Shown: positions 4,101 to 23,968 of the stretch, piece by piece
Layout of the letters: every line of letters begins with the position of its first letter
How positions within the stretch are numbered: the first letter of the stretch is position 1
Origin: Alphaproteobacteria bacterium
GTDB lineage: Bacteria; Pseudomonadota; Alphaproteobacteria; Micropepsales; Micropepsaceae
Direction of reading: 5' to 3'
DNA: 64,000 bases
NCBI GenBank assembly: GCA_028292825.1
Contig: JAQGLO010000144.1
Coordinates: 1 to 64,000 of the forward strand
Position numbers and translations under genes: made by a program
Notes under the pieces: generated by a model
The model's input: only the letters and a program-made list of their open reading frames with translations
Told to the model about the DNA's origin: nothing
Databases searched by the model: none

Positions 4101-4204
4101 CCGTAAATTCCGAACAGCCCCGCATCGACGGCCTCGCGGAAATCGATGACCTCGCGCTCCGGGTAGGGTCCAAAGGCTTGTATTGTGAGCCTGACGGGCT
4201 TCAT
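1130..4204 (-). CDS. sbcC: SbcC-like exonuclease ATPase subunit
   Basis: A 1024-residue SMC/Rad50-type ATPase. It partners SbcD to form a complex that opens and degrades hairpin and protein-blocked DNA ends. Seen in the sequence: an N-terminal Walker A (GQTGSGKST, about residue 36), a Q-loop region, long Ala/Glu/Lys-rich coiled coils, a central zinc hook (CPVCG, about residue 520), and C-terminally the ABC signature LSGGE and Walker B (IFIDEGFG). The length is normal for the family. Its ATG overlaps the sbcD stop by 4 bp, so the pair is translationally coupled. SbcCD is usually a backbone gene pair. Here it lies inside an integrated island, divergent from a restriction-type operon, so a role in defence or in processing foreign DNA is inferred. 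Confidence 0.93.
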   Translation of the reverse strand: MKPVRLTIQAFGPYPEREVIDFREAVDAGLFGIYGQTGSGKSTIFCAITFALFGEPAKTDQEAPSLRSDHADPGTQTEVEFVFDIGGQRFAIVRRPEQMRPKQRGGGETRSAHEAFLFDSTGLALDDIREGHRGKILAEKKVRDVDMAVANILGYGPEQFRQIVLLPQGRFETFLSAKTKERLDILRELFDVSLYGSLMARLKADAEAAERDVRDERAVCVGRLTVEGFESTDALAGGITSAESHHTAMQEIERAARVAFDAAQEELQKSETIEARFKVAESTRGTLAALLVGKSEMDTLAERVARAECARSLIDVEGNVTDAKRAVGEAGEKLDQAQKAANGAGAKEQAAADALKCEADRMGEIDALRQQVEEFDRHQSTLEKSSGVTEALNEAQALEHAATVKIADTRLKLAGSQAKHREKSDGLKLAHQKETRRQEIAVRLATINPAIAASESYEKAQKDVQAAIADVTALRSRHEAANHDAVKARVAYEDAEQSLSAAQALHLASKLEAGEPCPVCGALEHPTPATGAIEHAGREAAFREAKATWEKADVASRAAEQKVAGAEGILRERGEKISGLMSPVKTSLELKADAETERRALLGLGTATDIAEAEAEIERLHQQTEGLEKEREALQKHLSERQKATASEMARLEEMLAAVPEALRDGNALAAARETAAQSLVARQAAKEKAEVAAATTREAALTARKDRETAENNLSIAQGHHRKTIEILAARLAQAGLSDQDFLTLKPFIATIDQDRAKVEEHRRKLENAREAVDSATEALQQQTRPDLPAVTARRTDAATKLSEATDLRSAAWHRLDHLVKLRDSLADTLRRLDDAEGACGPLRELAGMVNGSNSQRLDLETFAIGAMFDQVLEAANLRLGPMTTSRYRMQRDLEGGGRGRRGLGIEVFDFHTGKARPTTTLSGGETFIAALALALGLADVVECANGKVRLDTIFIDEGFGSLDAESGSGTLDKVLEVLNALVSQNRAVGLISHVPLVQEAIPNGFYVRKHLSGSSVEARGMV

Positions 4205-5343
4205 GCCGCATCCCCCTCTTGCTGCATGTCGCCTAGCGCCGAGGCGATGACCCTCGCTTCCGGCTCGCTCATTCGTTGATCCCGCACAAGATCCAGGAAA
4301 TCGTTGATTACATCGGCGGGATCGGCCGCCGCGATGGTTCTTGCTTCCAAGGGCTTGCTTTCGCGGGCCTGCTCATCGCGTGCATAGGTCAGGTCGCAAG
4401 CGCTGGGGAACACGACGCGCAAACGCTTCATAGCGTCGATCACGAGCGTGTCGTCGGTGAGTACGACTTTTATGAAATCTTCCGACGGCGGTGCGAGTAG
4501 AAGTTCGGCATGCCTTCCCCGCAGGACGCGAACGCGGCGCATGGGTTGGAAAGCAATCGTTTCGACCGTCACACGCCCCTCGCCATCGATATCGACCAGG
4601 TTCATGGATTTTGCGGCGTCTGCCTCGTCGAATCCGAAGGCGAGCGGCGATCCCGAATAGCGGATGTGCGAGGCGCCCGCGGACTGTGGCCGGTGCAGGT
4701 GCCCTAGCGCTACATATTGCGCTCCAGCATAAGTCTCAGGCCGGACGGTTTCGATGCCGCCGACCCGAACCAGCGATCGCTCGCTTTCGCTGCCGGCCGC
4801 GCCCACCACAAACGCATGTGAGACGACTACCCAGCGCGCGCCGTCGGGAACATGGCGTCGCGCGGCGGCAAGCTGTGCTGCAAGCACATGCTCTGGGGTC
4901 TGCATCGTCTCGTCTGAGAAACACTCGCGGGCTGCATATTCGTAGGCGAACGGTAGGCCCGAAAAGGCGACAACGCCATGCGCATCGGAAAGAAGAAGGG
5001 GCTTCTCGTCGGCGCTGATCACGCCTCGGATAAGCGCCCGCCGGGTATCGGTCATGATGGACATCGACTCGATCCGATCGCCGGAATCGTGATTGCCAGC
5101 GATCATGATCACTGCAGTTTTTGTGTCCGAGGCGATCCGAGACAGGAAGGTGTTGAACTGCCGGACTGCCGTTGCCGGCGGCGTGGCACGGTCGAAAATG
5201 TCGCCGGCGATCACAAGAGCGTCGACGGCGTGGTCGATTACCGCGCGCCCGATCTGGTCAAGAACCGCATCATGGTCCTGATCCAGCGCTATCCCATTGA
5301 ATTGTCGACCTAAATGAAGGTCTGAGGTGTGAAGAATCTTCAT
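4201..5343 (-). CDS. sbcD: SbcD-like metallophosphoesterase nuclease subunit
   Basis: A 380-residue Mre11/SbcD-type nuclease. The phosphoesterase motifs appear in order near the N-terminus: SDLHLGR (about residue 7), AGDIFD, AGNHDS, then SHAFV and GHLHRPQ, which supply the metal-binding Asp, His and Asn. A C-terminal capping domain follows. It is the first gene of a leftward sbcD-sbcC unit. Only 76 bp separate its start from the divergent WYL-domain gene, so the two units probably share a control region. Family function (Mn-dependent nuclease with SbcC) is established; its role in this island is inferred. Confidence 0.93.
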   Translation of the reverse strand: MKILHTSDLHLGRQFNGIALDQDHDAVLDQIGRAVIDHAVDALVIAGDIFDRATPPATAVRQFNTFLSRIASDTKTAVIMIAGNHDSGDRIESMSIMTDTRRALIRGVISADEKPLLLSDAHGVVAFSGLPFAYEYAARECFSDETMQTPEHVLAAQLAAARRHVPDGARWVVVSHAFVVGAAGSESERSLVRVGGIETVRPETYAGAQYVALGHLHRPQSAGASHIRYSGSPLAFGFDEADAAKSMNLVDIDGEGRVTVETIAFQPMRRVRVLRGRHAELLLAPPSEDFIKVVLTDDTLVIDAMKRLRVVFPSACDLTYARDEQARESKPLEARTIAAADPADVINDFLDLVRDQRMSEPEARVIASALGDMQQEGDAA

Positions 5344-5419: not shown

Positions 5420-6226
5420 ATGAATTTCGACGAGCTTAAACATGCCCAGCGCGAGCGCCTGATTTTTCTTGATCGCTGCTTGACCTGGCGGGGAATGGCG
5501 AACCGGCGAGATCTGATCGACCGCTTTGAAATTTCAATGGCGCAGGCAGCGCTGGATTTCCGTGTTTATATCGATCTCGCGCATGTCCCACCTATTTATG
5601 ACCGGGTACGTAAGACCTATATCGCCGGGCGCGGGCATCAGCCCTTGGCGCCGTCCAGCCTCACAGAGGCTTTCGATGTGCTGATCGGCGAAGGGGAAAG
5701 CGCGCAGTCTTCCGCGTTGCCACGGCCGGAACGCACGGCTAATCCCGCCGTTATTGCGCGGCTGCATCAGGTAATTCGCTCGGGCAGAAATCTTCATGTT
5801 CGTTACACCTCCATGACGGCCGGCGCCGATGAAGGACAGTGGATCGCGCCTGTCCGCTTCACATCCGATGGCGAAAGCGTCCATCTTCGGGCCTTCAGCT
5901 TCAAGCATGGAGAATATCGGAACTATCTCCCGATCCGGATTGAACCCGATAGCTCTTTTGCGGAAAGGTCGCTGCCCGAACCGCTGCCGCCTGACGATGA
6001 TTGGTATACGCGCGCGATCATTTGGTTACGCCCAAAACCTGAGCTCTCGGAACAGCAGGCTAGGGTGGTCCGGCGAGAATTCGGATTCGAGGGTGAATAT
6101 CTGTGCGTGGAGACCAGGAAGGCTTTAGAGTTCTTTATCGATCGGAGATGGGGCCTCAATGAAAGAGGCGCGCGGCTGGAGCGGGTAAGGACCGTTTATC
6201 AACCGTCGTCATCAGCCGTCTCTTAG
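5420..6226 (+). CDS. WYL-domain transcriptional regulator
   Basis: A 268-residue protein. An N-terminal winged-helix-like region (about residues 1-75, with a ...RRDLIDRFEISMAQAALDFR... type helix pair) precedes a WYL domain (about 105-190), seen as LHVRYTSM, WIAPVRF and VHLRAFSFKHGEYRNYLPIRI-type segments, then a C-terminal WCX-like part. This layout matches the BrxR/CapW-type repressors that control many phage-defence operons by sensing a nucleic-acid ligand. It is the first rightward gene, facing sbcD across 76 bp, and is followed 164 bp later by the SNF2-PLD-Mod-Res operon. Control of both units is inferred from position. Confidence 0.8.
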   Translation: MNFDELKHAQRERLIFLDRCLTWRGMANRRDLIDRFEISMAQAALDFRVYIDLAHVPPIYDRVRKTYIAGRGHQPLAPSSLTEAFDVLIGEGESAQSSALPRPERTANPAVIARLHQVIRSGRNLHVRYTSMTAGADEGQWIAPVRFTSDGESVHLRAFSFKHGEYRNYLPIRIEPDSSFAERSLPEPLPPDDDWYTRAIIWLRPKPELSEQQARVVRREFGFEGEYLCVETRKALEFFIDRRWGLNERGARLERVRTVYQPSSSAVS

Positions 6227-6389
6227 TCCGAAAGCTGGACCGGTTCGACTATTGTGTGCAACCTTAGGGTGGGGACGAACCATCCGGGCAAAGATCGCCA
6301 ACGCCGACTTTGTGCTCTGTCTTGTCTTCATGCGCAGCAGGAGGATGCGATAGCGGCCTTTATCGGTTTGAGGCTTTAGGGGGCGGAGT
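6227..6389 (+). promoter_or_regulatory. Leader region of the SNF2-PLD-Mod-Res operon
   Basis: This 163-bp gap precedes the SNF2 gene and has no coding potential that I can see. It contains an inverted repeat GGTTCG (6242-6247) and CGAACC (6276-6281), centres 34 bp apart, a possible operator for the adjacent WYL regulator. AGGGGG at the right end serves as ribosome site for the TTG start at 6390. Confidence 0.35.
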
Positions 6390-9239
6390 TTGACTACGGC
6401 CTATCACGCCAAGCTGTTCGCGCATGAACTCATGCGGCGCCACTCAGCCAGTGACTCTGAAAAGCTGGCGAGCACTCTTCTTGACGCCCAGGTTGATCTC
6501 AATCCCCATCAGGTTGAAGCGGCGCTTTTTGCATTCAAGTCACCGCTATCAAAGGGGGCGATCCTCGCTGACGAAGTCGGCCTAGGAAAAACGATCGAAG
6601 CCGGTCTCCTCCTCGCTCAGAAATGGACCGAGGGTAAGCGGCGTATACTAATCATTTGCCCTGCCAGCTTGCGGAAACAGTGGTCGCAGGAAATGGCCGA
6701 CAAGTTCTTTTTGCCCAGCGTCATTATAGAAAGCGTAAGTTTCAACAAGCTCCGTAAAGCCGGGATGCGCCGGCCATTCGAGCAGGACGGGCTTGTAATC
6801 TGTTCATATCAATTTGCTGCGCGCCAGGCGGACGAATTGATGGTCACGAAATGGGACCTCGTTGTCATCGACGAAGCCCATCGTCTTCGCAACGTTTACC
6901 GGAGCGACAACAAGACAGGTCGCGCGTTGAAAACCGCGCTAGCTAATGCGCCGAAGATTTTGCTCACTGCAACTCCTCTCCAAAATTCCCTAATGGAGTT
7001 ATACGGACTGGTCAGCATCATCGACGACTACACCTTTGGAGATGCGAAGAGCTTTCGGACGCAGTACGCGCGCCTTACTGGTGATACCTTGTTTGACGAA
7101 CTCAAGGCGCGCCTTTCGCCAATCTGTCACCGCACTCTGCGTCGCCAGGTGCTTGAATATATCCGCTACACGAACCGGATTCCTATCACCCAAGAATTTA
7201 TGCCGTCCGAGCCCGAGCAGGCCCTATATGATTTAGTCTCCGAATATCTGCGCCGCCCAAGTCTTCAGGCACTGCCCTCGGGTCAGCGCACGCTAATGAC
7301 GCTAATCATGCGCAAGCTGTTAGCGTCTTCCACATTTGCCATTGCGGGAGCGTTGGACTCACTCGCGCGCAAACTTGAGCGCCAACTCAAGGACGACAAG
7401 GCCGCCCGTGAGGTTCTGCACGAGGAATTAGCCGAAGATTACGAGCAGCTAACGGAAATCGCCGAGGAATGGTTGGATGATGAAGACGTGCCAGAACCTC
7501 TCACCGAGGCAGACATTATTGCAATCAATGCTGAGATCGCCGATCTAAGAGCGTTTCGCGATCACGCTGTGGCTATAGCAGAGAATTCCAAAGGTCTTTC
7601 TCTATTGAGTGCGTTGAAAGCGGGTTTCGAAAAAGCCGCTGATCTAGGTGGCCCTCAGAAGGCAATCATTTTCACAGAGTCACGGCGTACCCAGGACTAT
7701 CTAGTTCGGCTGCTTTCGGAGCGTGGCTTCGGCGAACAGATCGTACTCTTCAACGGTAGCAATAGTGACCCACAATCGAAGTCCATCTACCGGGACTGGG
7801 TTCAAGAGAACAAGGGGACAGATCGCGTGACAGGGTCGCGCTCTGCTGATATGCGGGCTGCGTTGGTCGATCACTTTAAGACTAAGGCGTCGATCATGAT
7901 TGCAACCGAGGCCGCTGCCGAAGGGATCAATCTCCAGTTCTGCTCAATGGTCGTGAACTACGATCTACCGTGGAATCCTCAACGCATCGAACAACGGATC
8001 GGTCGATGCCACCGGTACGGTCAAAAGCACGACGTCGTCGTGGTCAATTTCATCAATCGAAGCAACGCGGCCGATCAACGCGTCTACGAACTTCTCTCTG
8101 AGAAATTCCAGCTCTTCTCCGGTGTCTTTGGGGCTAGCGATGAAGTGCTTGGTGCGATCGAGTCCGGAGTCGAATTTGAGAAGCGAATTGTCTCTATATA
8201 TCAAAACTGCCGAACGGAAAGTGAGATAGAAACTGAATTTCGCGCTCTGCGCGAGGAAATGGACGCTACGATCACGACGACGATGGAAGACACGCGTCGA
8301 AAACTCCTCGAAAATTTTGATGCTGAGGTTCATGACCGCCTTAAGATGAATCTTGACCGCAGCCGCGAATACATCAATCGTTATGAGCGACTCCTTTGGC
8401 GTGTCACGCAATACGAACTTGCGGACCAGGCCAAATTTGACGAGGATTATCTTCACTTCAACTTGACCAAGCGCCCGGACGGTGTTGACGTACCAGACGG
8501 ACCATATTTTCTTACCAAAGTCGGGCTCGTCGGCCACAGATATCGACTGGGCCATCCGCTTGCGCAGCATGTTATGGGACTGGCAGCAGAGCGTGCGCTA
8601 CCTATAGCGCACATCACATTCGATTATTCATCTTGGCAACAGCGTGCCGTCAGCCTTGAGCCTCTCGTCGGGTCGACTGGCACTATGGTTGTTCAAAAGC
8701 TGTCGGTCTCGGGCATCGACTCCCACGACCACGTCTTAGTGGTCGCACGAACTCGGGATGGCCAGCCGATCGATCCCCAAGCGGCGCATCGCCTGTTCGA
8801 TCTGCCGGCGAAGGTCACCGCGGTCGACACAACAGGAAGCACATCTGATTTGCGGCTCGATCTTGAAAAGCGGTCGGCCGAAATCCTTGAGGCTCTCGCG
8901 GCGCGCCAGTCCTCATGGTTCGACGACGAGATGGCCAAGCTCGATCTTTGGGCGGAAGATAAGCGAACCGGCTTAAAGTTCAGCCTCAAAGAGCTCGACG
9001 ACAATCTGAAAGCACTGAAGAGGGAGATTCGCCAAATAGGCAACCTACCCGACAAGTTGGTGCTTCAGCGCAGGGCAAGGGAAATGGAAGGAAAGAGAGA
9101 CGCTGCCTGGCGCGATTACGATGAGGCGGCAAAAGCGGTCGAACTGGAGAAAGATAATTTAATTGATCGGGTTGAAGAACAGCTCGCTCAAAATGTTGGA
9201 ACGGAAGATCTTTTCACTATCACATTTCAAATCAAATAG
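6390..9239 (+). CDS. SNF2/HepA-type helicase of the defence operon
   Basis: A 949-residue superfamily 2 translocase. Seen: Walker A DEVGLGKT (about residue 62), DEAH box VVIDEAH (about 158), motif III TATPLQ, and in the second RecA lobe EAAAEGINLQ and motif VI QRIGRCHRYGQ (about 535). A long Glu/Arg-rich, probably coiled-coil C-terminal third (about 620-949) follows. The architecture resembles the HepA-like SNF2 proteins of the DISARM (DrmD) and Dpd (DpdE) systems. The start is a TTG with AGGGGG six bases upstream; the next in-frame Met is 14 codons in. The stop lies 9 bp before the PLD gene, so they form an operon. DNA translocation or target sensing is inferred. Confidence 0.88.
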   Translation: MTTAYHAKLFAHELMRRHSASDSEKLASTLLDAQVDLNPHQVEAALFAFKSPLSKGAILADEVGLGKTIEAGLLLAQKWTEGKRRILIICPASLRKQWSQEMADKFFLPSVIIESVSFNKLRKAGMRRPFEQDGLVICSYQFAARQADELMVTKWDLVVIDEAHRLRNVYRSDNKTGRALKTALANAPKILLTATPLQNSLMELYGLVSIIDDYTFGDAKSFRTQYARLTGDTLFDELKARLSPICHRTLRRQVLEYIRYTNRIPITQEFMPSEPEQALYDLVSEYLRRPSLQALPSGQRTLMTLIMRKLLASSTFAIAGALDSLARKLERQLKDDKAAREVLHEELAEDYEQLTEIAEEWLDDEDVPEPLTEADIIAINAEIADLRAFRDHAVAIAENSKGLSLLSALKAGFEKAADLGGPQKAIIFTESRRTQDYLVRLLSERGFGEQIVLFNGSNSDPQSKSIYRDWVQENKGTDRVTGSRSADMRAALVDHFKTKASIMIATEAAAEGINLQFCSMVVNYDLPWNPQRIEQRIGRCHRYGQKHDVVVVNFINRSNAADQRVYELLSEKFQLFSGVFGASDEVLGAIESGVEFEKRIVSIYQNCRTESEIETEFRALREEMDATITTTMEDTRRKLLENFDAEVHDRLKMNLDRSREYINRYERLLWRVTQYELADQAKFDEDYLHFNLTKRPDGVDVPDGPYFLTKVGLVGHRYRLGHPLAQHVMGLAAERALPIAHITFDYSSWQQRAVSLEPLVGSTGTMVVQKLSVSGIDSHDHVLVVARTRDGQPIDPQAAHRLFDLPAKVTAVDTTGSTSDLRLDLEKRSAEILEALAARQSSWFDDEMAKLDLWAEDKRTGLKFSLKELDDNLKALKREIRQIGNLPDKLVLQRRAREMEGKRDAAWRDYDEAAKAVELEKDNLIDRVEEQLAQNVGTEDLFTITFQIK

Positions 9240-9248
9240 GAGGCTAAA

Positions 9249-10289
9249 ATGCCTACAGAGATACTTTGGAGTGGGCGTGGCGGAGAGAATTTTTTAGATG
9301 TCCTGAGAACGCAAATTAGTACGACAAAGCCAACCGCCCTTGGATTGGCAGTGGCGTATGCTTCAGTTTATGGCGTCAGGGAACTACATGGGGTTCTTCG
9401 TAGGAATTCCGTAAGTGAATGTCGCGTGGTCACTGACATTAGGGATTGTGTCACGCATCCAAACGCACTGCGTCTTGCACTTGATTCAGGGTGGGATGTG
9501 AGGGTCGTCAATAGTTCTGCAACGTTCCACTCGAAGCTATACGTAGGATGCAAATCTTTTGGCCGAGGGAACGAACCACGGGACCACAAATTCTCCATCG
9601 TTGGCTCGCCGAATCTTAGCAAAGCCGCGTTTCAACGGAACGCTGAGTGCTTCTTTGTTTCGGATGAAGCGTCACAGCCTGCGTCTACCGGAGCCACCTG
9701 GGCGGCTCTTTGGCAGCTCGGTACCCGCGCAACTCCGGCGGGGATAAAGCGCTATGAAAAGCTGTTCCAATCGCGGAATCGCTGGCGGCCCGTACAAGAT
9801 CTCGTCACGCTTGGCGTCGCTGAGGACCCGGTGTCCGGAGTTGGAGGGCTAGCCTCCCCTTTGGGTGAACCGGCCCTATCGCCATTAAGCGCGACGGCTG
9901 CCTGGGCCGGCTTGGAGTCCTTCACAGGTGATTACAAGCTTCAACCAGAATTCCCGAGCCGGGCCGCGAATGTCCTGCGAAATATATTGAGTTCTAGAGC
10001 TGCTGCTCGCAAAGTAGATATGTTGTGCGAAGACGGCATCACCAGAGAATTCACCTTCCCGTTTTATAAGGCGAACGGTATGTTTCGCCTAAACGTCCCG
10101 AACGATGTTCCTTCTGCTCAATGGGCGAGAGCTAATAAGGCAGGAATCGCGCTTGTTGAAGTCCGGGGCGTGAATGATATCCGGTTCACCATTGTGCGTC
10201 CGGGTAGGGACTTGAACGAAGTGGTGAAGCGATCCCGAGCATTGGGCACGTTAGGATCGACATCTACTCGGCTGTATGGCTGGTATTAA
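9249..10289 (+). CDS. Phospholipase D-family nuclease-like protein
   Basis: A 346-residue protein with one HKD-type catalytic element: HSKLY at about residue 94 and, 24 residues on, GSPNLSKAAF. This is the HxK...GSxN pattern of PLD-superfamily nucleases such as DrmC-like proteins. Only one motif is visible, so a dimer would be needed for a complete active site, as known for bacterial PLD nucleases. The C-terminal half (about 200-346) has no recognised domain. An excellent AGGAGG site precedes the ATG. It is tightly packed between the SNF2 helicase (9 bp) and Mod (23 bp), which implies a shared function. DNA cleavage is inferred. Confidence 0.82.
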   Translation: MPTEILWSGRGGENFLDVLRTQISTTKPTALGLAVAYASVYGVRELHGVLRRNSVSECRVVTDIRDCVTHPNALRLALDSGWDVRVVNSSATFHSKLYVGCKSFGRGNEPRDHKFSIVGSPNLSKAAFQRNAECFFVSDEASQPASTGATWAALWQLGTRATPAGIKRYEKLFQSRNRWRPVQDLVTLGVAEDPVSGVGGLASPLGEPALSPLSATAAWAGLESFTGDYKLQPEFPSRAANVLRNILSSRAAARKVDMLCEDGITREFTFPFYKANGMFRLNVPNDVPSAQWARANKAGIALVEVRGVNDIRFTIVRPGRDLNEVVKRSRALGTLGSTSTRLYGWY

Positions 10290-10312
10290 TGCTCTTGGAG
10301 AAGTGACCCGAA

Positions 10313-12190
10313 ATGTCATCCCGTCCCACACAAGAGCCAACCTTGGACATTTCGCGCGAGAAAAGCGACGAATTGAAGTCGTTTCTTCGCACAGCTTTTC
10401 CGGAGGCGGTAGCGGAAGAAAAGATCGACTACGATCAATTGAGACGTGTTTTGGGCGACACAGTCGAGCCGGATCGCGAGCGCTTCGGATTAAATTGGCC
10501 CGGTCGAGCCGATTGCATGAAGGTCATTCAGGCGCCAAGCAGGGGCGCTCTCAAGCCTCAGCTTGAGAAGTCTGTGAATTGGGACGATACCGCGAACCTA
10601 GTGATAGACGGCGACAATCTTGAAGTCCTCAAGCTACTTCAAAAAGCATATTTTGGCCGAGTGAAGCTCATATACATCGACCCTCCGTATAATACTGGCG
10701 GAGAGTTCATCTACCCGGACAAGTACGCCGAGAATCTGGAAACGTACTTGCAATATACAGGGCAGAGTGACGCTGGCGGCCGCAAATTTTCTACAAACAG
10801 CGATACGTCGGGGCGCTATCACTCAAGATGGCTCAATATGATGTATCCGCGCTTATATCTCGCGAAGAACCTCCTCGCCGATGATGGATCAATCTTTGTA
10901 AGCATTGACGCTCATGAAGTTCATCACTTGAGATGTGTACTGGATCAGATATTTGGCGAGGAAAACTACAGAACGACAATATCCTGGCAGAAGAGATATA
11001 CCCGCAGCAATAATACGGTCGACTTCACCGAAGTGGTGGAATACATCCTGGTTTATTCGCGCTCACCTTCCTTCTCTGTGAACTTACTTCCGCGCACCGA
11101 AGACGCTGATGCGCGATACACAAACCCTGATAATGACGAACGCGGAGTATGGAAGGGGGCGTCTTTCTTGAATCCAGCGACGCCGCAAGAGAGGCCCAAC
11201 CTCGCTTACCCGATAAAGAATCCTAATACCGGGCAGGTTACGCTGCCTACTCGCAGTGCGTGGCGAAGGTCAAAAGAAGCTTTCGAGCAGCTTGGCGCAG
11301 AGGGAAAACTGTATTGGGGACCAGATGGCACAGCCGCAGTGCCCTCTATCAAGATGTTTCTCTCAGAGGCTCGGGGGCTCACCCCCACTAATTTCTGGGA
11401 ACATGAGTATGCCGGCCATACTGATGAAGGAACACGTGACCTTGACAAGCTTCTACCGGGGCGCGTGTTTAACAACCCAAAGCCAGTCAAACTAATCCAA
11501 CGCATCATAGAGCATGTTTGCGACTCTGATTCATTGATCCTGGATTTCTTTGCGGGTTCGGGTGTAACCGCAGAAGCCGTAATAAGGTCAAATGTAGAAT
11601 CTCAGAGCCGTCGAAAGTTTATCCTGGTTCAATTACCGGAGCCTTGTGAAGACAAGGCGCAAGCCAGCAAACGCGGATTTGAAACGATCACTGACATCAC
11701 GCGCGCTCGCGTTCGCGCGGTCATTGACGAATTGGCCGGCCGTACCGACACGGCCAGCATTGACCTGGGGTATCGCGGGTTTCGTTTAGATCGTTCCAAC
11801 TTTAAGGAATGGGGTGGCGTCGACGCCAGCTTGGACGATATCGATCAGCGGTTAGATTTACATGCCGATCACCTTGATCCACTAAGTACAGAAGAAGACA
11901 TCCTGTTTGAATTGCTTCTAAAAGATGGCTTCCCGCCTTCAGCACAAGTCGAAGTGCTAACGCTTGCGAGCAAGAGGGTTTTCGCGGTCGCCAACCGGAC
12001 CCTCCTGGTCTGCTTGGACAGGGCGCTCACCCAGAGCGTTCTTGATGCAATGGCGGATTTAGAACCTTCGCGCGTCACGTGTCTTGATGCCGGTTTCCAA
12101 GGAAATGATCAACTCAAGGCCAACGCGGTGCAAACGTTCCGAGCGCGCGCCCGCAGCCGCGAGACTGCCATCGAATTTCGTACCGTTTGA
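10313..12190 (+). CDS. Type III-like DNA adenine methyltransferase (Mod)
   Basis: A 625-residue beta-class N6-adenine methyltransferase. Motif IV DPPYNTGG (residue 123 on) comes before the SAM-binding motif DFFAGSGVTAEAV (about 411), as in type III Mod subunits. The segment between (about 200-380) would hold target recognition. Residues 480-625 form a C-terminal part typical of Mod proteins that contact Res. The Res gene follows after 10 bp. It probably methylates one strand of an asymmetric site to mark self DNA and supplies specificity to Res. The motifs are complete, so activity is expected. The coupling to an upstream SNF2 and PLD gene is not part of classical type III systems. Confidence 0.9.
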   Translation: MSSRPTQEPTLDISREKSDELKSFLRTAFPEAVAEEKIDYDQLRRVLGDTVEPDRERFGLNWPGRADCMKVIQAPSRGALKPQLEKSVNWDDTANLVIDGDNLEVLKLLQKAYFGRVKLIYIDPPYNTGGEFIYPDKYAENLETYLQYTGQSDAGGRKFSTNSDTSGRYHSRWLNMMYPRLYLAKNLLADDGSIFVSIDAHEVHHLRCVLDQIFGEENYRTTISWQKRYTRSNNTVDFTEVVEYILVYSRSPSFSVNLLPRTEDADARYTNPDNDERGVWKGASFLNPATPQERPNLAYPIKNPNTGQVTLPTRSAWRRSKEAFEQLGAEGKLYWGPDGTAAVPSIKMFLSEARGLTPTNFWEHEYAGHTDEGTRDLDKLLPGRVFNNPKPVKLIQRIIEHVCDSDSLILDFFAGSGVTAEAVIRSNVESQSRRKFILVQLPEPCEDKAQASKRGFETITDITRARVRAVIDELAGRTDTASIDLGYRGFRLDRSNFKEWGGVDASLDDIDQRLDLHADHLDPLSTEEDILFELLLKDGFPPSAQVEVLTLASKRVFAVANRTLLVCLDRALTQSVLDAMADLEPSRVTCLDAGFQGNDQLKANAVQTFRARARSRETAIEFRTV

Positions 12191-12200
12191 GGCTTGGGCG

Positions 12201-15152
12201 ATGATGAAGCTCAAGTTTGACCCGTCGCTAGCTTACCAACTCGATGCCGTTAGCGCGGTTGCCGACGCGTTCAAAGGGCAGCCCGTTGGGCAAACGACGT
12301 TTGAAATCAGCGCGACGCTTCCAAGCGGCGTGGCGATTACAGAGTACGGCGTCGGCAATCGTCTCATTCTAAATGACGCGCAGTTCTTGGGCAACATCCG
12401 TGCAATCCAAGAGCGCAATGGAATAGAGCGCACTGAAATCCTTCAAGGGCGCGAGTTCTCTGTTGAGATGGAGACTGGAACGGGAAAGACATACGTTTAC
12501 CTGCGATCAATCTTTGAACTAAATAAGCGCTACGGTTTCAAGAAATTTATCATCGTCGTACCGAGTATCGCGATCCGCGAGGGCGTCATAAAAAGTCTCG
12601 AGATCATGCGAGAGCATTTTCAAGCCTTATATGACAACACTCCGTTCGTTCCTTTTGTCTACGACTCGAAACGACTCGGTGACGTTCGGCAGTTCGCTGG
12701 CGGTAACGCTGTCCAGATAATGATTATCAATATCCAAGCCTTTCTCAAGGATGTTGGCGAAGCGGAAACTCCCATCGATAGTTTGGATGAAGAGGCGTTG
12801 AAGCGCCTCAATGTGATCTATCGCGATAGCGACAAAATGGGCGGTCGGCCGATCGAATTCATCCGCTCAACGTGCCCCATCGTAATCATCGACGAGCCAC
12901 AAAGCGTAGATACCACCCCGAAATCGCGCCGGGCGATCATGCAACTTAATCCGGCGGCGACGCTTCGCTACTCTGCCACCCACCGTAACCCCTATAACCT
13001 GCTCTATAGGTTGGGACCGATCGAGGCCTATGACAGGCGCCTCGTCAAGCGAATCGAGGTGGCTTCAATCCGTGCGGATTCTGACTTTTCTGGCGCCTAT
13101 GTAAAACTTCTCAAAACCGACAACAAGAACGGCATTAAGGCGCAGCTTGAGTTCCACCGAATTTCCAATGGCAATCCCAAGCCAGTCAAGGTGTGGGTCA
13201 AGCAAACAGACGACCTATTTCGCCTATCGAACGAACACTTCCCTTACCACCAGGGGTTTGTGGTCCAACACATCGATGCGACGCCGGGAAATGAAACCAT
13301 CGAATTCAACCAGGGAGGATTTCTCGAGCTGGGGCAAGCCATTGGCGGTGTCGAGGCCGACGTGATGAAGGCGATGGTTCGCAAGACCGTCGAGCAGCAT
13401 CTTAAGAAGGAACGAGCCCTCCGAAATCAGGGAATTAAAGTTCTTTCGCTCTTCTTCCTCGACAAAGTCGCGAGCTATAGGACCTATAATGGTGACGGGA
13501 CAACTGCGCTCGGGCCGGTCGGTAAGTGGCTGGAAGAAGCCTTAACTGAGTTCCTTGCCAAGCCGATTTATCAGGGCCTAGTGAACTTCCCGATGGATCA
13601 GCTCCACAACGGCTATTTCTCGCAGGACAAAAAAGGGCAGGCCAAGGATACTCGTGGCAACACAACAGACGATGAAGACACCTACGCGCTCATTATGCGT
13701 GACAAGGAGCGTTTACTCGATCCGAAGGAGCCCCTGCGATTCATTTTCAGCCACACTGCTCTTCGTGAGGGCTGGGACAATCCCAATGTATTCCAGATTT
13801 GCACACTGCGCGAGGTCGGCACTGAGCTCGAGCGCCGGCAACAGATTGGTCGTGGACTTCGACTTCCAGTTAATGAAAATGGAGAGCGGGTTCACGACGA
13901 GCAGCTCAATCGGCTGACTGTTATCGCTAGCGAGTCTTACAAGGACTTCGCCGCGGCCCTGCAGAACGAGTATGAACGGGACTTCGACATCAAGTTTGGC
14001 CGTATCGAACGCCAGGCGTTCGCGATGCTGGTTCGGAAGACTGAAAGCAGTGACGAATTTGCCATTGGTCAAGATGCTTCAGTAAATATCTGGAGCGCCC
14101 TTTTGGCCATGGGCTATATCAACTCGGTCGGTGATATCCAGCCAAAGTTCGAACCCGATAATTTGCTCTTCCGACTTCAACTCCCGGAGGAGTTTGAAGA
14201 TCTTCGCGCCCCTATTTTCGACGAAATGCGCCGCTACGTGTTCGCTGATCGGATCGGTAACGCCGACGCGAAGCGAGAAGTGAGATTTAATAAGCAGGTT
14301 CATTTGCGCGAGGATTTCCGCGAACTGTGGGGACGCATCAGCCAGAAGACCCGATATCGTGTCGCGTTTGAGACCGCAGACCTGATCGACCGCGCCGTCA
14401 ACCGGCTGAAGGCAATGGAGCGTATCAGCCCGCTGACCATGACGGCGACACGCGTAGACGTGGACTTTACGCTAGCGGGCATCCAGGCGGATCGCCTTCT
14501 TGAGAATGACACCCAACTTCTGCAGGGACCGACAGTCCTCCCTGACATCATAGCTTACCTCCAAAAGGAAACAGAGCTAACACGGCACACGCTTGTCGAG
14601 ATCCTGAAGGCGTCAAACCGTATTGTCGAATTTCGAGGCAATCCGCAGCAATTCATGGCAGTCGCCGCGCGGGAGATTGGCTACGCAATGCATGACCTAA
14701 TGCTTGAAGGAATACAGTACGAAAAGATCGCCGGCGAGTTCTGGGAAATGAAGCGTATCGAGGACGATGCAGAAAAGGGCATCAGCCGCTATCTCAAGAA
14801 CCTCTATGAGGTCAAAGACCGGTCCAAGGCGCTTTTCGATGCCATCGAATTCGAGTCGGAGGTCGAAAGGCAGTTCGCGCAAGATCTAGACTCTAACGAG
14901 AACGTAAAGCTGTTCGTAAAGCTTCCGAGTTGGTTCAAGATCGAAACGCCCATCGGCTCGTACAACCCTGATTGGGCCTTCGTCACTGAGCGCGACGAGC
15001 GGCTCTATTTCGTTCGCGAGACGAAAGGTACGCTCGACAGCCAGGACAGGCGGACCAAGGAGAATCAGAAAATCCTGTGCGGTCGCCGACACTTCGAAGT
15101 GCTAGGCACTAATTTCGACGTAGTGACGAACATTGCCCAAGTAAAATTCTAG
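12201..15152 (+). CDS. Type III-like restriction subunit (Res), helicase-nuclease
   Basis: About 983 residues from the ATG at 12201, which has GAGG upstream and sits 10 bp after mod. An upstream in-frame start would overlap mod by about 100 bp and adds a non-conserved tail, so it was not used. Seen: Walker A METGTGKT (about residue 90), DEPQ-type Walker B (about 230), REGWDNPNVF and QIGRGLRLP (about 546). A C-terminal PD-(D/E)XK nuclease site follows, with PDW (about 922) and ETKG (about 938). These are the hallmarks of type III Res, which translocates or diffuses on DNA and cuts with Mod. All catalytic elements look intact. Confidence 0.92.
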   Translation: MMKLKFDPSLAYQLDAVSAVADAFKGQPVGQTTFEISATLPSGVAITEYGVGNRLILNDAQFLGNIRAIQERNGIERTEILQGREFSVEMETGTGKTYVYLRSIFELNKRYGFKKFIIVVPSIAIREGVIKSLEIMREHFQALYDNTPFVPFVYDSKRLGDVRQFAGGNAVQIMIINIQAFLKDVGEAETPIDSLDEEALKRLNVIYRDSDKMGGRPIEFIRSTCPIVIIDEPQSVDTTPKSRRAIMQLNPAATLRYSATHRNPYNLLYRLGPIEAYDRRLVKRIEVASIRADSDFSGAYVKLLKTDNKNGIKAQLEFHRISNGNPKPVKVWVKQTDDLFRLSNEHFPYHQGFVVQHIDATPGNETIEFNQGGFLELGQAIGGVEADVMKAMVRKTVEQHLKKERALRNQGIKVLSLFFLDKVASYRTYNGDGTTALGPVGKWLEEALTEFLAKPIYQGLVNFPMDQLHNGYFSQDKKGQAKDTRGNTTDDEDTYALIMRDKERLLDPKEPLRFIFSHTALREGWDNPNVFQICTLREVGTELERRQQIGRGLRLPVNENGERVHDEQLNRLTVIASESYKDFAAALQNEYERDFDIKFGRIERQAFAMLVRKTESSDEFAIGQDASVNIWSALLAMGYINSVGDIQPKFEPDNLLFRLQLPEEFEDLRAPIFDEMRRYVFADRIGNADAKREVRFNKQVHLREDFRELWGRISQKTRYRVAFETADLIDRAVNRLKAMERISPLTMTATRVDVDFTLAGIQADRLLENDTQLLQGPTVLPDIIAYLQKETELTRHTLVEILKASNRIVEFRGNPQQFMAVAAREIGYAMHDLMLEGIQYEKIAGEFWEMKRIEDDAEKGISRYLKNLYEVKDRSKALFDAIEFESEVERQFAQDLDSNENVKLFVKLPSWFKIETPIGSYNPDWAFVTERDERLYFVRETKGTLDSQDRRTKENQKILCGRRHFEVLGTNFDVVTNIAQVKF

Positions 15153-15245
15153 GCGTGCAACATTCGTCTATAGGCCCTTTGATTTGATACCCGTATTGAT
15201 AGAGTGTTCTGCGTTGAACCGTTTCCACTGATGTGAGGGCTTCTT

Positions 15246-16676
15246 TTGGCGCGGCGATCAAATTTGAAGGATCTTGCTCCGATACTGGATGCAGCTACGC
15301 GTTGGATCGCGGAGTGCGTTATTGAGGATGGCTCAGTCTTTTCACCTCAAACCGTTTGGACATCGCAGATTATTGGCGAAGCGCGGAGCGCCTTTGTTCT
15401 CAATCCAGATTTTGGGGAAAACGACTTTATTACGAAACTCCAAGGCCAAATCGCGGGTACCTCTGTAGCAGCGCAACAGCTTATGGCAGAGATGCTGTGG
15501 GCATTGCTGCTTTTTCCTTCTGGAAGCCGCCCCATTACGAAGCGTGCGCAGCTGACTAGAATTCTCAGTGGCGAGAATATCGCCCTCCCAATTAACTCCC
15601 AAAACCTTTCAGATGCCGCGCTTTCTGGCATTGGATCAGGGGGGCCGGCGTTCAACACTTATCGGCCAAGTGAACTTGAGTACCTGTTGGACTTGATACT
15701 CGACTTGAAGAGCCGATCAAAGGAAGCCCGGCGTGAGGTGTTCGATTCGTATGACAAATTTATTGAATGGATTGGGGCCGTGCCACGCAAGGGGGACCGG
15801 CAATACAGGCATATGCTTCGATATTTTGCCTTTCCTGATCTTGTCGAGCGTATTTCCACTAATACGGATCGTAGGCTTATCTTGGAAGGGTTTGGCCAAG
15901 ATTCAATTAAAGCGACAAAGTCGTGGAGCGATGCTCAATTAGATCAAGCGCTTCTAAAACTGCGGCAGAAGCTGCAAGACCAATACCCAAACATCGTTCT
16001 GGACTTTTACGAGCCACCCCTTAGGCAATTTTGGGCCGCCGACCGGAAATCCGTCCTTATACCATCGGGTTCCGTGCCAATCGTTGTTCCTACAAGCGAG
16101 GATGATGTCGAAGAAGTGTCGCCCACTGGTGCTGCTGACGGTGAGCCCAGACAGTCCCATCAGATTCAAGCAGCAATAGCGGAAATCGGGGCATTGATGG
16201 GCCTGAAGGTTTGGTTGCCCCCCGGTGACAGGGCCAAAGTAGCGGGGCTCATGGACGATGCATGCCAAAAAGCTTTGTTAGACAAGCTGCCAATCAATAC
16301 TGACTCAAATACGCTCGGTACCGTTTCACAAATTGACGTTCTTTGGCTCAACCGCACCTCGATCGTGCGGGCTTTCGAGGTTGAGCATACAACGGCGGTT
16401 TATTCGGGTCTCTTGAGGATGGCCGATTTACTGGCGCTTCAACCTAATATGAGCATCGCCTTACACATTGTTGCGCCGGAAGAACGGAAGGATAAGGTGT
16501 TCCGCGAAATGTTAAGGCCAGTGTTCACCTACTTGGAAGCCGGGCCTCTTTGTAAGACGTGCACCTTTATCTCGTATGATAGCATTCAAGAGATCCGAAA
16601 ATTAAAGACGCTTGCGCACACTCAAGCATCGATCATTGAAGATTACGAAGAACGTGCTGAAAGTGGATTGCAGTGA
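15246..16676 (+). CDS. Predicted PD-(D/E)XK-like nuclease, unknown family
   Basis: A 476-residue protein with a TTG start preceded by GAGGG. The N-terminal two thirds match no domain I know. The C-terminal third has a restriction-nuclease-like core: an IDVLW strand (Asp about 364), a hairpin, then FEVEHT (Glu about 378 and 380) followed by an Arg/Asp-bearing helix (SGLLRMADL). The catalytic Lys of PD-(D/E)XK is replaced by Glu or lost, giving ExE, a variant found in some active nucleases and in binding-only proteins. It lies 93 bp after Res on the same strand and is probably the last gene of the defence operon. Nuclease function is an inference from the short motif only. Confidence 0.5.
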   Translation: MARRSNLKDLAPILDAATRWIAECVIEDGSVFSPQTVWTSQIIGEARSAFVLNPDFGENDFITKLQGQIAGTSVAAQQLMAEMLWALLLFPSGSRPITKRAQLTRILSGENIALPINSQNLSDAALSGIGSGGPAFNTYRPSELEYLLDLILDLKSRSKEARREVFDSYDKFIEWIGAVPRKGDRQYRHMLRYFAFPDLVERISTNTDRRLILEGFGQDSIKATKSWSDAQLDQALLKLRQKLQDQYPNIVLDFYEPPLRQFWAADRKSVLIPSGSVPIVVPTSEDDVEEVSPTGAADGEPRQSHQIQAAIAEIGALMGLKVWLPPGDRAKVAGLMDDACQKALLDKLPINTDSNTLGTVSQIDVLWLNRTSIVRAFEVEHTTAVYSGLLRMADLLALQPNMSIALHIVAPEERKDKVFREMLRPVFTYLEAGPLCKTCTFISYDSIQEIRKLKTLAHTQASIIEDYEERAESGLQ

Positions 16677-16745
16677 GCAAGTCGCACCACATGAGCATCG
16701 TGTCCCTAGGGACGCCGATGCTCATATGATAGCGGGTTATGCGCA

Positions 16746-17306
16746 TCAATTGTGTCTAATTAGCTTAGGCAACATACGCGAAATTGGATCCGGAACCGAG
16801 TCCGCGCGGCAAACATCGCAGCGTGCCCGCATGTCCCGGATACGACCCCCAACAACAACTTGGTAATCGGCGCGAAAATCTCCAGTTCCGTCTCCGCGAT
16901 TTGTCATCATTGTTCGCAAGTTTCCGATCTTCCCTCGTAGTGTCCTGCGATCAAGGCCGGGGCATGCGACACCGTGATAGGTGGAAGCAAGTTCCCCCAA
17001 CCATGGAATGATGGCGGGCATTCCGCGGATAATAGTGGCCCCAGGGAGCTCGGGACTAAGATCTGGATCGGAATCTGCCACTGGATCATTGAGGCCGTTC
17101 TCGTAATCGTAAAGCCGCGCCCTTACTCGCCATTCGCGTGCTCGACCGTCGGCCCGCCGTTCTTCGCCAAAAAGTTCGCCCATTACGGCATTCAGCAAAG
17201 TCTCGGGTGTGGTGTTGGCGAGCGCAGCCTGTGAAGTGATTTGTTCCCGGAAATGTTGTCCGAGTGCTGTGACGGCAGCTTCATATGCGTCATTGGGATT
17301 TGGCAT
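16746..17306 (-). CDS. Hypothetical island protein
   Basis: 186 residues from the ATG at 17306, chosen because GGAG stands 8 bases upstream. A longer in-frame ATG start at 17369 would add 21 residues that look less protein-like. No family is recognised. The C-terminal part has CxVC-like cysteines (ARCDVCRAD) and an Arg-rich stretch. There is no signal peptide or membrane segment. It is transcribed leftward, convergent with the predicted nuclease gene 69 bp away. Its role is unknown. Confidence 0.55.
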   Translation of the reverse strand: MPNPNDAYEAAVTALGQHFREQITSQAALANTTPETLLNAVMGELFGEERRADGRAREWRVRARLYDYENGLNDPVADSDPDLSPELPGATIIRGMPAIIPWLGELASTYHGVACPGLDRRTLRGKIGNLRTMMTNRGDGTGDFRADYQVVVGGRIRDMRARCDVCRADSVPDPISRMLPKLIRHN

Positions 17307-17540: not shown

Positions 17541-17750
17541 CTATCCACTGCTGTACTCAGATGTGCTCTGCCGCTTGCGCGAGGAAAGAAATTCGTCAAG
17601 GTCAGTGCGATCATATCGTACTGACCTACCGGCCTTAATATAGCGTGGCCCTCCGCCGAACACCCGGAGCTTGGAAAGTGTCGACGAGGAAATGCCTGTA
17701 TATGCGGCCGCCTCTGGCGTGCGCATTCGAGCTGGAATTGGGGGGTACAT
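17541..17750 (-). CDS. AlpA/excisionase-like small DNA-binding protein
   Basis: About 69 residues from ATG 17750, which has GAGG four bases upstream. A start 15 codons earlier is possible. The sequence has the MerR-like helix-turn-helix signature of AlpA/excisionase proteins: TPEAAAYTGISSSTLSKLR, then GGGPRYIKAGRSVRYDRTDLDEFL. This is the 'DNA-binding domain, excisionase family' pattern, with the RYxxxDLDxFL ending. Such proteins sit beside tyrosine integrases on islands and either bend DNA for excision or activate int expression. Here it lies two genes from the integrase on the same strand. Confidence 0.75.
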   Translation of the reverse strand: MYPPIPARMRTPEAAAYTGISSSTLSKLRVFGGGPRYIKAGRSVRYDRTDLDEFLSSRKRQSTSEYSSG

Positions 17751-17818
17751 AGGACCTCGCTTCAATGTTCGCGAAGTCCACAAAACACATAGCAATAAAA
17801 CGCGCCACGCGGATTAAA

Positions 17819-18301
17819 TCACACCGCCGACCAAAATTTCGCACGCTTTCTTATTTGCTCTGCCAACTTTTTGGAATCGAGGTGGATTCCATCTTTCTCG
17901 GCGAGGCTCCGCGCGGTCTCTGCAATTAATGCTCTGCCTCGAGAGGGTCTGTTTTTCCCTCCGCCTTTGAACAACTCGAGCGCCCAATCACGGCGCCCTA
18001 CTCGAAACGCCAATGCAATCAACTTGGCATACGCTCTGTCGGTGTAAGGCATTTCGGGCTCCTTGGTTGTACCGGGAAGCCTACCTTTTCGGACATTTAC
18101 AGGCTGTTCGTCTTTGAGTTCGTCGAGCGCTGCGACCCAGCCTGCCGCAGCTTCGGGAATTTCGAAACACCAGCTTTTGTCGCTGCGAAATAGGTTTGCC
18201 AATCGGCGAATGTCGCGCTGACGGTTCCAGGGTGTTTTCCCCTTTAAACGCCGGCGGAGTTCTTGTCTTGCGCGATTGTTATAATCTGTGATGTCGCTCA
18301 C
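17819..18301 (-). CDS. Hypothetical protein coupled to the integrase
   Basis: A 160-residue basic protein. Its ATG overlaps the integrase stop by 4 bp (ATGA type), so it is translationally coupled to int. The N-terminal third is Arg/Lys-rich (RQELRRRLKGK), suggesting nucleic-acid contact, and the rest is predicted helical. No known domain is recognised. The context suggests a role in island maintenance or recombination control. Confidence 0.65.
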   Translation of the reverse strand: MSDITDYNNRARQELRRRLKGKTPWNRQRDIRRLANLFRSDKSWCFEIPEAAAGWVAALDELKDEQPVNVRKGRLPGTTKEPEMPYTDRAYAKLIALAFRVGRRDWALELFKGGGKNRPSRGRALIAETARSLAEKDGIHLDSKKLAEQIRKRAKFWSAV

Positions 18302-19569
18302 GGAATGGTGGCCTTAGGCAAGATTTGCAAGACCGTCGCACTGGTGTGATCCGTTCCAAGGAGAGAGGACGCCATCGCTCCGGCTACGCTGTCAGCGGCG
18401 GCAAGCAATGCGCTGTCGGGCGCGGTAGCATAGCGCGCGGTGACGCCTTTTACCCGATGTCCCAGCATGCCTGCTATAACCAGCTCGCTATAGCCCATGG
18501 CTGTGGCTGCGCTCGCGAACCAGTGCCGAAGGCCATGGATGCTTACTCCATTAATGCCGGCGCGGCGGGCGATCCGTTCCCAGACTCGGGGTAAGCCAAT
18601 GAAATGGCCAGTTTTTGACGCGCCGGGAAATACGAAATCTCGAGGTTTCCAGTCAGGAGGCCGAAAGCTGAGGAGTAATTCGATAGCCGCCCGGCCAAGC
18701 GGCCGAATTTGGGCGCCAGACTTGGTGTCCTTGAAGCGCAAGCAGCGGTTTTGGGTGTCGACTGTTTCCCACGTCAGTCCAAGAATTTCCATGCGGCGGC
18801 AGCCAGACAGTAGCAGGAGCCTAATAGCCCGCAGACCAATAGCGTTTTCAGCATCCTCTTCAGCTTGACGTATCGCTAAACCCAGCTTTGCGATGGTCTC
18901 AAATTCAAAACCTGGCCTGCGTTCTCCGTCCTTGGGGCGCGCGACGCCGCGGGCGGGATTTTTCGCAAGTACCCCATCTCTCACGGCGCGCTCTAGAATG
19001 GTGCCGAGCATCCCAAGTGTTCGAGATGCCGCCCCTGCTCCGCCCGTTGTTTGTCCCCCGCGTGCCCTTTTGGCCGCCTGAGGCACCTTTGTGGCGGTCT
19101 TTCCTGCCATCACGTCCCTAAGGAATTTCTCGAGATCCGCATGGGTGAGGCTGGCCACCGGCCGAGTGCCAAGGAGAGGCTTTACGTGACGTTCGATCCG
19201 GCTCTTATCCATTGTCAGGGTGCTAGGCTTGATACGGCCCTGGCCGGCTTCTAGGTAGTCGTCGCAGAGCTGGGCCACCGTCTGAGCGTTCCTGGCCTCT
19301 CCACGGTCACTAGCTGGGTCTATGCCCTCGCTAATCGCCACGAACAGCTTGATTGCCTTCTTGCGTGCCTGGTCTGGCGTAAGCTTGGAGGCTGGACCAA
19401 GCGTATAGCGGCGGCTGCGATTATGGGTGTTCCTATACTGAATCAGCCACGACTTAGCCCCAGAGGGCTTCACGCGAAGGCCAAAGCCCGCCAAGTCCTC
19501 GTCAAACACGACCTTATCGGCCGGATCCGGCTTTATGGCGTCAGTATAGCGTTTTGTTAGTTTGACCAT
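18298..19569 (-). CDS. Tyrosine integrase of the island
   Basis: 423 residues from ATG 19569, which has GAGG six bases upstream; an upstream in-frame start adds 14 unlikely residues. Layout: N-terminal DUF4102-type arm-binding domain (about 1-85, with LKVKPSG-like GLRVKPSGAKSW and YTLGP segments), SAM-like core-binding domain (about 95-190), then the catalytic domain. The catalytic elements are SGCRRMEILGL (first Arg), HGLRHWFAS (HxxR), LGHR (second His) and TARYA (nucleophilic Tyr). This is the P4-type subfamily that targets tRNA 3' ends, which agrees with the flanking tRNA-Gly repeats. The candidate arm sites at 19581-19598 overlap its own leader, so the integrase may repress itself. Confidence 0.95.
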   Translation of the reverse strand: MVKLTKRYTDAIKPDPADKVVFDEDLAGFGLRVKPSGAKSWLIQYRNTHNRSRRYTLGPASKLTPDQARKKAIKLFVAISEGIDPASDRGEARNAQTVAQLCDDYLEAGQGRIKPSTLTMDKSRIERHVKPLLGTRPVASLTHADLEKFLRDVMAGKTATKVPQAAKRARGGQTTGGAGAASRTLGMLGTILERAVRDGVLAKNPARGVARPKDGERRPGFEFETIAKLGLAIRQAEEDAENAIGLRAIRLLLLSGCRRMEILGLTWETVDTQNRCLRFKDTKSGAQIRPLGRAAIELLLSFRPPDWKPRDFVFPGASKTGHFIGLPRVWERIARRAGINGVSIHGLRHWFASAATAMGYSELVIAGMLGHRVKGVTARYATAPDSALLAAADSVAGAMASSLLGTDHTSATVLQILPKATIP

Positions 19570-19580
19570 GGAGCACCTCG

Positions 19581-19598
19581 GGTAAGCACCAGGTAAGC
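19581..19598 (+). promoter_or_regulatory. Candidate integrase arm-type sites, right end
   Basis: Two direct GGTAAGC copies at 19581-19587 and 19592-19598 have an 11-bp period, matching the pair at 329-346 in sequence, strand and spacing. They lie immediately upstream of the integrase ribosome site and 130 bp from the attR core. This is consistent with both recombination and autoregulation, but neither is shown. Confidence 0.5.
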
Positions 19599-19727
19599 AC
19601 GAAGCAGGCATTCAACGGCGTCCGGCGGAATGATAAGGCAAGGAAGCGATAGGTTAACTATATGAAATACATTGATAAATGAATGTCGCGGAATTCCCAG
19701 GAAAGAGCAAGTTAAAGCTGCTCCTAT

Positions 19728-19775
19728 CCTTGCCAAGGTTAGGGTCGACGGTTCGAATCCGTTCGCCCGCTCCAA
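19728..19775 (+). repeat. attR core: duplicated 3' half of tRNA-Gly
   Basis: A 48-bp exact copy of 216-263. It lacks the acceptor 5' strand and D-arm, so it is not a working tRNA. It marks the right junction between the island and host DNA. Confidence 0.9.
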
Positions 19776-23955: not shown

Positions 23956-23968
23956 AGGGCATGGCGCA

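What the first reader, a model, noticed from the sequence alone, without database searches (positions are those of the whole stretch)
6390..16676. SNF2-PLD-Mod-Res operon: possible undescribed hybrid defence system
A SNF2 helicase, a single-motif PLD nuclease, a type III Mod and a type III Res are packed with gaps of 9, 23 and 10 bp, followed by a predicted PD-(D/E)XK-like protein and preceded by a WYL regulator. Classical type III systems have only Mod and Res. DISARM has SNF2 (DrmD) and PLD (DrmC), but with DrmA/DrmB and a different methylase. Dpd has SNF2 and PLD with a base-modification enzyme. None of DrmA, DrmB or DpdA is seen here. The set may act as two layers: Mod/Res restriction plus a SNF2-guided PLD nuclease.
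Basis: partly seen in the sequence, partly recalled or inferred. Interest (0 to 1): 0.85.

Follow-up and report, generated by a model that had tools for sequence, protein, structure and literature searches.

The report
Type III restriction operon with extras
A mobile genome island carries a type III DNA-cutting defence operon that also has a recurring DNA-motor gene of unknown role and an inserted second DNA-cutting enzyme; the core was already reported in 2021, but the exchangeable extra-weapon slot and partner swapping seen here make the motor's unknown job testable.

Summary
The four genes are real, intact and spaced as stated (gaps 9, 23 and 10 bp). The core is SNF2-Mod-Res. In 80 of 86 full-length relatives of this SNF2 with enough sequence, from many phyla, Mod and Res follow on the same strand; 0 of 14 distant SNF2s show this. 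It is therefore a recurrent system, not a chance neighbour set. It is also not wholly undescribed: Murray et al. 2021 reported type III systems (Eco86II, BspHIV) with an extra SF2 ATPase 5' of mod in more than 500 genomes. The NCTC86 ATPase is 45% identical to this SNF2 over full length. DISARM is disfavoured: no DUF1998 (DrmB-type) hit, and model cut-offs not reached. The PLD gene is not DrmC; its model matches BfiI and R.NgoAVII, a PLD nuclease plus a B3 DNA-reading domain. It sits in a variable slot (filled in 59 of 100 loci) that elsewhere holds AIPR, Schlafen-like, SMC/RloC-like, SIR2, Abi_2 or Fic proteins. PLD changes at least three times on the tree; the window's nearest SNF2 relatives have none there. 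The same SNF2 family pairs with three Res classes not linked by BLAST. Everything lies on a ~19.5 kb tRNA-Gly island. Verdict: new variant of a known kind.

The parts
6390..9239 (+). SNF2-family (RapA/DrmD-like) ATPase, 949 aa; conserved core of the system
   Evidence: alignment A1 with invariant helicase motifs; AF2 model pLDDT 79 with best fold match RapA; 45% identical to the E. coli NCTC86 SNF2
9249..10289 (+). PLD nuclease with predicted C-terminal B3-like DNA-binding domain (BfiI / R.NgoAVII-like); slot-1 cargo
   Evidence: HxK, GSxN and NxE conserved in homologues; Foldseek top hit BfiI 2c1l prob 1.00; VIA-align 2c1l Z 9.3 over 232 aa, 4rct R.NgoAVII Z 9.1, plant B3 domains Z about 5.9 on residues 222-319; model mean pLDDT only 59
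10313..12190 (+). type III Mod, beta-class amino-methyltransferase (DPPY, FAGSG)
   Evidence: PADLOC MTase_III 9e-184; PF01555; EcoP15I Mod 6e-60
12201..15152 (+). type III Res, SF2 ATPase plus PD-(D/E)XK endonuclease domain, EcoP15I-like
   Evidence: PADLOC REase_III 5e-296; PF19778, PF04851; EcoP15I Res 5.5e-68
5420..6226 (+). WYL-domain regulator upstream; several annotated relatives have a small HTH gene there instead; probable regulator
   Evidence: PF13280 3.9e-5; WYL also directly before SNF2 in L046 and L084; small HTH in relatives
15246..16676 (+). accessory ORF with a PD-(D/E)XK-like restriction-enzyme domain; not conserved in relatives
   Evidence: PADLOC REase_II 1.5e-15 on residues 302-432; a homologue in only one other locus, L185; no solved relative
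1130..5343 (-). SbcC-like (1130-4204) and SbcD-like (4201-5343) pair, divergent, same island; associated cargo
   Evidence: AAA_23, SbcD_C and Metallophos; homologues downstream of Res in L099/L158, L103, L104, L168
216..263 (+). attL: 3' end of tRNA-Gly (188-262); 48-bp exact repeat
19728..19775 (+). attR: second copy of the 48-bp repeat
18298..19611 (-). tyrosine integrase of the island
   Evidence: PF00589 5.5e-15, PF13356 6.5e-17
17541..17750 (-). 69-aa AlpA-like excisionase candidate
   Evidence: reading frame seen; assigned by eye only

Best explanation
A mobile type III restriction-modification operon of the kind that carries an extra RapA-like SNF2 ATPase before mod, with a BfiI/NgoAVII-type endonuclease (PLD plus B3) inserted as a second nuclease. 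Mod methylates one strand of a short asymmetric host site. Mod2Res recognises unmethylated invading DNA and Res cuts it, as in EcoP15I (from homology). SNF2 is proposed to act as a dsDNA translocase that works with the type III complex, stripping roadblocks or signalling that restriction is stalled, and thereby licenses whatever effector sits in the adjacent slot (inferred, not shown). Here that effector would read its own DNA site through B3 and cut as a PLD dimer, giving a second cut that does not depend on Res. Shown: the genes, motifs, conserved SNF2-Mod-Res linkage, slot variability, Res partner exchange and island. Inferred: the SNF2 role, PLD activation and PLD site. How the host is spared from PLD is unknown: either Mod methylation also covers its site, or it is inactive until triggered.
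For: SNF2-Mod-Res linkage 80/86 versus 0/14 in distant SNF2s, across many phyla, plasmids and viral contigs. Published functional type III systems with this ATPase family: PMC8259958, its NCTC86 locus and 45% SNF2 identity. Slot-1 occupants are mostly defence or abortive-infection families, with some unidentified. SNF2 tree: slot filled/empty changes at least 23 times, PLD at least 3, Res class at least 9. PLD-B3 fold. Intact motifs. Precedent that PLD-B3 R-proteins need an SF2 ATPase partner, CglI/NgoAVII (PMC4267653). Precedent for effectors embedded in R-M operons, PrrC (PMC3710099). Island with 48-bp att repeat and integrase.
Against: In Eco86II the extra ATPase was not needed for methylation, and no ATPase peptides were found in a preparation that still cut DNA in vitro (PMC8259958), so a direct restriction role for SNF2 is unsupported. 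41 of 100 loci have no slot-1 gene, so licensing a slot effector cannot be SNF2's only job. The B3 part of the PLD model is low confidence. No activity data exist for any of these genes.
Confidence: 0.6

Rival explanations
1. CglI/NgoAVII-like coupling: SNF2 and PLD-B3 form one ATP-dependent endonuclease (SNF2 taking the place of the DEAD-Z1 N-protein), alongside a separate Mod-Res enzyme, with Mod protecting the host from both.
For: R.NgoAVII 4rct and BfiI are the best full-length fold matches; R-proteins of CglI and NgoAVII are inactive on DNA without an SF2 ATPase; snf2 and pld are 9 bp apart; no Z1 N-protein found in the own genome, while the C. glutamicum control rings; three SNF2-PLD-Mod-Res loci scattered on the SNF2 tree.
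Against: Most SNF2 relatives lack PLD; a PLD homologue in L216 lies between Mod and Res with the SNF2 position off the contig; no Z1 domain is seen in SNF2; BfiI needs no ATPase, so PLD could act alone.
Confidence: 0.3
2. Independent cargo: PLD-B3 is a stand-alone restriction or modification-dependent nuclease that merely uses the operon's promoter, with no physical link to SNF2, Mod or Res.
For: PLD is rare and sporadic on the SNF2 tree; the slot holds unrelated families; SauUSI, a type IV PLD enzyme, is the top VIA match for the PLD domain.
Against: All four full homologues known here, the window's included, sit inside a Mod-Res operon; no dedicated protective methyltransferase for it is present.
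Confidence: 0.35
3. A degenerate or divergent DISARM locus.
For: PADLOC DrmD match 9e-211; PLD has a weak DrmC match, 8e-4.
Against: NCBIfam DrmD_b and DrmC cut-offs not reached; no DUF1998 (DrmB) hit in the own genome; relatives are linked to Mod-Res.
Confidence: 0.02

Closest known systems
Type III m4C R-M systems with an extra helicase-like ATPase (Eco86II, BspHIV; Murray et al. 2021, PMC8259958)
   Same: Same order ATPase-mod-res; the ATPase of E. coli NCTC86 is 45% identical over full length.
   Different: PLD-B3 inserted before mod; Mod only 24% identical and Res not alignable by BLAST to the NCTC86 ones; Mod/Res are EcoP15I-like; methylated base unknown.
EcoP15I / EcoPI type III R-M
   Same: Mod and Res homologues.
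   Different: The classical systems lack SNF2 and PLD.
NgoAVII / CglI and BfiI restriction enzymes
   Same: PLD plus B3-like endonuclease fold; an SF2-type ATPase gene next to it, as in CglI.
   Different: ATPase is SNF2/RapA type without a Z1 match; methyltransferase is type III Mod, not C5; an extra Res nuclease is present.
DISARM (DrmD, DrmC)
   Same: SNF2 is DrmD-related; a PLD gene is present.
   Different: No DrmB-type gene found; models below cut-off; PLD not DrmC.
BREX-related / Hma systems (PMC12839542)
   Same: RapA-type Swi2/Snf2 helicase plus an amino-methyltransferase.
   Different: No DUF499 ATPase in the operon; a type III Res is present.

Membership tests
Type III R-M | beta-class Mod with DPPY and FxGxG motifs | tested here: met
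Type III R-M | Res with SF2 ATPase and C-terminal PD-(D/E)XK nuclease, next to mod | tested here: met
Type III R-M | cleavage needs two inversely oriented unmethylated sites and ATP | not testable with these tools
   needs biochemistry
Type III with extra ATPase (Eco86II group) | homologous helicase-like ATPase 5' of mod | tested here: met
   that NCTC86's only type III system is Eco86II rests on PMC8259958
Type III with extra ATPase (Eco86II group) | m4C methylation | not testable with these tools
   motifs of the NCTC86 Mod and window Mod do not differ at DPPY/FAGSG
Type III with extra ATPase (Eco86II group) | Mod/Res of the same lineage as Eco86II | tested here: not met
   Mod 24%, Res no significant BLAST match; it shares the ATPase, not the Mod/Res lineage, so it is filed as a variant
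DISARM | DrmB (DUF1998/MZB) present | tested here: not met
   PF09369 absent in own genome, control rings in 8 of 14; genome 82% complete
DISARM | DrmA helicase present | tested here: inconclusive
   no ORF among the ten scanned around the operon is best matched by DrmA; rest of genome not scanned for it
DISARM | SNF2 and PLD reach DrmD / DrmC curated cut-offs | tested here: not met
   704.7 of 950 and 16 of 133 bits
NgoAVII/CglI | R-protein with PLD and B3 domains | tested here: inconclusive
   full-length fold matches to 4rct and 2c1l, but model pLDDT 59 and no sequence-level B3 match
NgoAVII/CglI | N-protein with DEAD and Z1 domains | tested here: not met
   PF10593 absent from own genome, present in C. 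glutamicum control
NgoAVII/CglI | C5 methyltransferase | tested here: not met
   the operon's methyltransferase is N6_N4_Mtase
Dpd | DpdA base-modification enzyme | not tested
   no dedicated search; SNF2 is below the DpdE cut-off, 213 of 500 bits
BREX-related / Hma | DUF499 ATPase in the operon | tested here: not met
   no such Pfam match among the ten ORFs scanned around the operon

The most novel reading that the evidence does not exclude
The SNF2 ATPase, whose function in type III systems is unknown, is the stable core of a modular platform: Mod-Res pairs of far-diverged lineages are swapped in as the self/non-self reader, and slot genes are swapped in as the weapon that the SNF2 motor releases. 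In this window the weapon is a PLD-B3 nuclease driven by SNF2 in a CglI-like way, making a type III plus CglI-like chimaera.
Probability: 0.25. Interest if true: 0.8.

Novelty: new variant of a known kind. Interest (0 to 1): 0.5.

Why it matters
The role of the extra ATPase in hundreds of type III systems has been open since 2021. The pattern found here (SNF2 constant, Res lineages swapped, slot between snf2 and mod filled by many unrelated defence-type genes) suggests a testable role: coupling restriction to a second-line effector. The PLD-B3 case gives a concrete biochemical test, since relatives of that enzyme are known to need an ATPase partner. It also warns that 'DrmD' labels do not mean DISARM.

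Tried and rejected
DISARM and Dpd: see membership tests. BREX-related/Hma and ARMADA: read; DUF499 or YprA components define them and were not seen here. Hypothesis that PLD is a constant SNF2 partner: rejected by the tree. Single-sequence searches for PLD relatives gave nothing in viral contigs and little in genomes; an alignment found two viral loci, one of them the already known L139 locus. PLD versus PDB by sequence alone: nothing useful. Empty-site test in congeners: inconclusive, since DNA downstream of tRNA-Gly did not match. Small HTH remnant upstream of SNF2 in the window: no tblastn hit. m6A versus m4C from motifs: not decidable. PADLOC/DefenseFinder as programs could not be run; PADLOC models were used. 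Literature search covers open-licence papers only, so a description elsewhere cannot be excluded.
Full report
Observation. The genes are present and intact at the stated places with gaps of 9, 23 and 10 bp. SNF2, Mod and Res are secure by profile and, for Mod and Res, by EcoP15I structures. The PLD gene is a weak family match by sequence.

Core. An alignment of 27 SNF2 relatives was used to fetch loci from genomes and viral contigs, adding plasmid and genome loci. Of 86 non-redundant full-length relatives with at least 8 kb downstream, 80 have Mod and Res following on the same strand, and 0 of 14 distant SNF2s do. One exception, L108, has Mod-Res in front of SNF2 instead. The fetched loci are the best hits of a pattern search, so the figure describes this SNF2 family, not all SNF2s.

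Already known part. Murray et al. 2021 (PMC8259958) describe type III systems Eco86II and BspHIV with an extra SF2 ATPase 5' of mod, seen in more than 500 genomes, function unknown, not needed for methylation and undetected in an active enzyme preparation. In E. coli NCTC86 an SNF2-Mod-Res operon is found; its SNF2 DNA is identical to that of the locus L210, whose protein is 45% identical to the window's over its length. The paper says that all but the Acinetobacter strain hold a single type III system, so this should be Eco86II; that step rests on the paper. The Mod of that locus is 24% identical and the Res does not align.

Modularity. Res proteins linked to this SNF2 family fall into three BLAST classes. 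On the SNF2 tree (FastTree, 118 rows) Res class changes at least 9 times. The gap between snf2 and mod is shorter than 150 bp in 41 of 100 loci and longer, nearly always holding genes, in 59. Occupants identified by Pfam on representatives include AIPR (12 loci), Schlafen AlbA_2, a 770-800-aa AAA_23/AAA_13 SMC- or RloC-like protein (7), AAA_21 with DUF4276, SIR2, Abi_2, Fic and GmrSD-HNH; RhuM and YhcG nucleases occur mainly between mod and res. Several occupants have no Pfam match and one is sigma-factor-like. Embedded effectors in R-M operons are an accepted idea (PrrC; PMC3710099); a slot of this breadth in this type III group was not found in the papers searched.

PLD. Homologues: L139/L215 (46%, SNF2-PLD-Mod-Res), L032 Roseomonas (25%, same order, unannotated), L216 (40%, Mod-PLD-Res, contig cut before any SNF2). 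The nearest SNF2 relatives of the window, L027 and L035, lack it. The model (pLDDT 59) matches BfiI over its length (Foldseek prob 1.00; VIA Z 9.3) and R.NgoAVII (Z 9.1), and its C-terminal part matches plant B3 domains (Z about 5.9). The full-length matches have a large rmsd, so the two domains are placed differently; the PLD and B3 matches taken separately are what count, and the B3 one is of middling strength. CglI and NgoAVII R-proteins need an SF2 N-protein to cut (PMC4267653). No Z1 N-protein is found in this genome, which is 82% complete.

Setting. The operon lies in a region of 51-56% GC against mostly 60-69% beyond the island, within an element bounded by a 48-bp exact repeat of the tRNA-Gly 3' end (216-263, 19728-19775) with a tyrosine integrase beside the far copy. 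SbcCD-like genes in the same island have homologues after Res in four other loci. WYL and ORF5 are not conserved.

Mechanism. Best reading: type III restriction by Mod-Res, plus a SNF2 motor of unknown direct role, plus a second, site-reading PLD-B3 nuclease as exchangeable cargo. Whether SNF2 drives PLD (0.3) or PLD acts alone (0.35) is open and directly testable. These confidences are judgement, not computed.

Noticed in passing
L230-L249 (20 loci of EcoP15I-like Res from the same phylum): 14 of 20 carry upstream of mod a different ~1080-aa SNF2-like protein whose N-terminal ~200 aa look by eye like a PLD domain without the HxK motif; in the two loci tested by Pfam a DUF4391 gene follows it. 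An inactive PLD-SNF2 fusion beside Mod-Res is a striking parallel to the window.
   Followed up: partly
window 1130-5343; L099, L103, L104, L168: SbcC/SbcD-like pair travels with SNF2-Mod-Res systems, divergent in the window and after Res in four other loci.
   Followed up: partly
window 216-19775: ~19.5 kb integrative element at tRNA-Gly with integrase and AlpA-like excisionase candidate.
   Followed up: partly
window 15246-16676 and L185:3806-5590: ORF5 homologue also lies near a distant SNF2 gene in L185.
   Followed up: no
L211:9811-10011 and other relatives upstream of SNF2: Small HTH gene overlapping the SNF2 start, annotated MAD1 (methylation-associated defense system) in E. coli; none detected in the window, which has a WYL gene instead.
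   Followed up: partly
L034:9400-10608: IS256 transposase between SNF2 and the Abi-Mod-Res genes in a Salmonella plasmid copy: a natural test of polarity.
   Followed up: no
L212 (E. coli NCTC9082): SNF2 - AAA ATPase - S8 peptidase - Mod - Res: ATPase/protease pair in the slot.
   Followed up: no
window 22786-29426: Three UxuA-like ORFs (22786-23955, within 25223-27979, 28191-29426) near a LysR gene (23969-24934), followed by a TonB receptor (29457-32240), outside the island.
   Followed up: no
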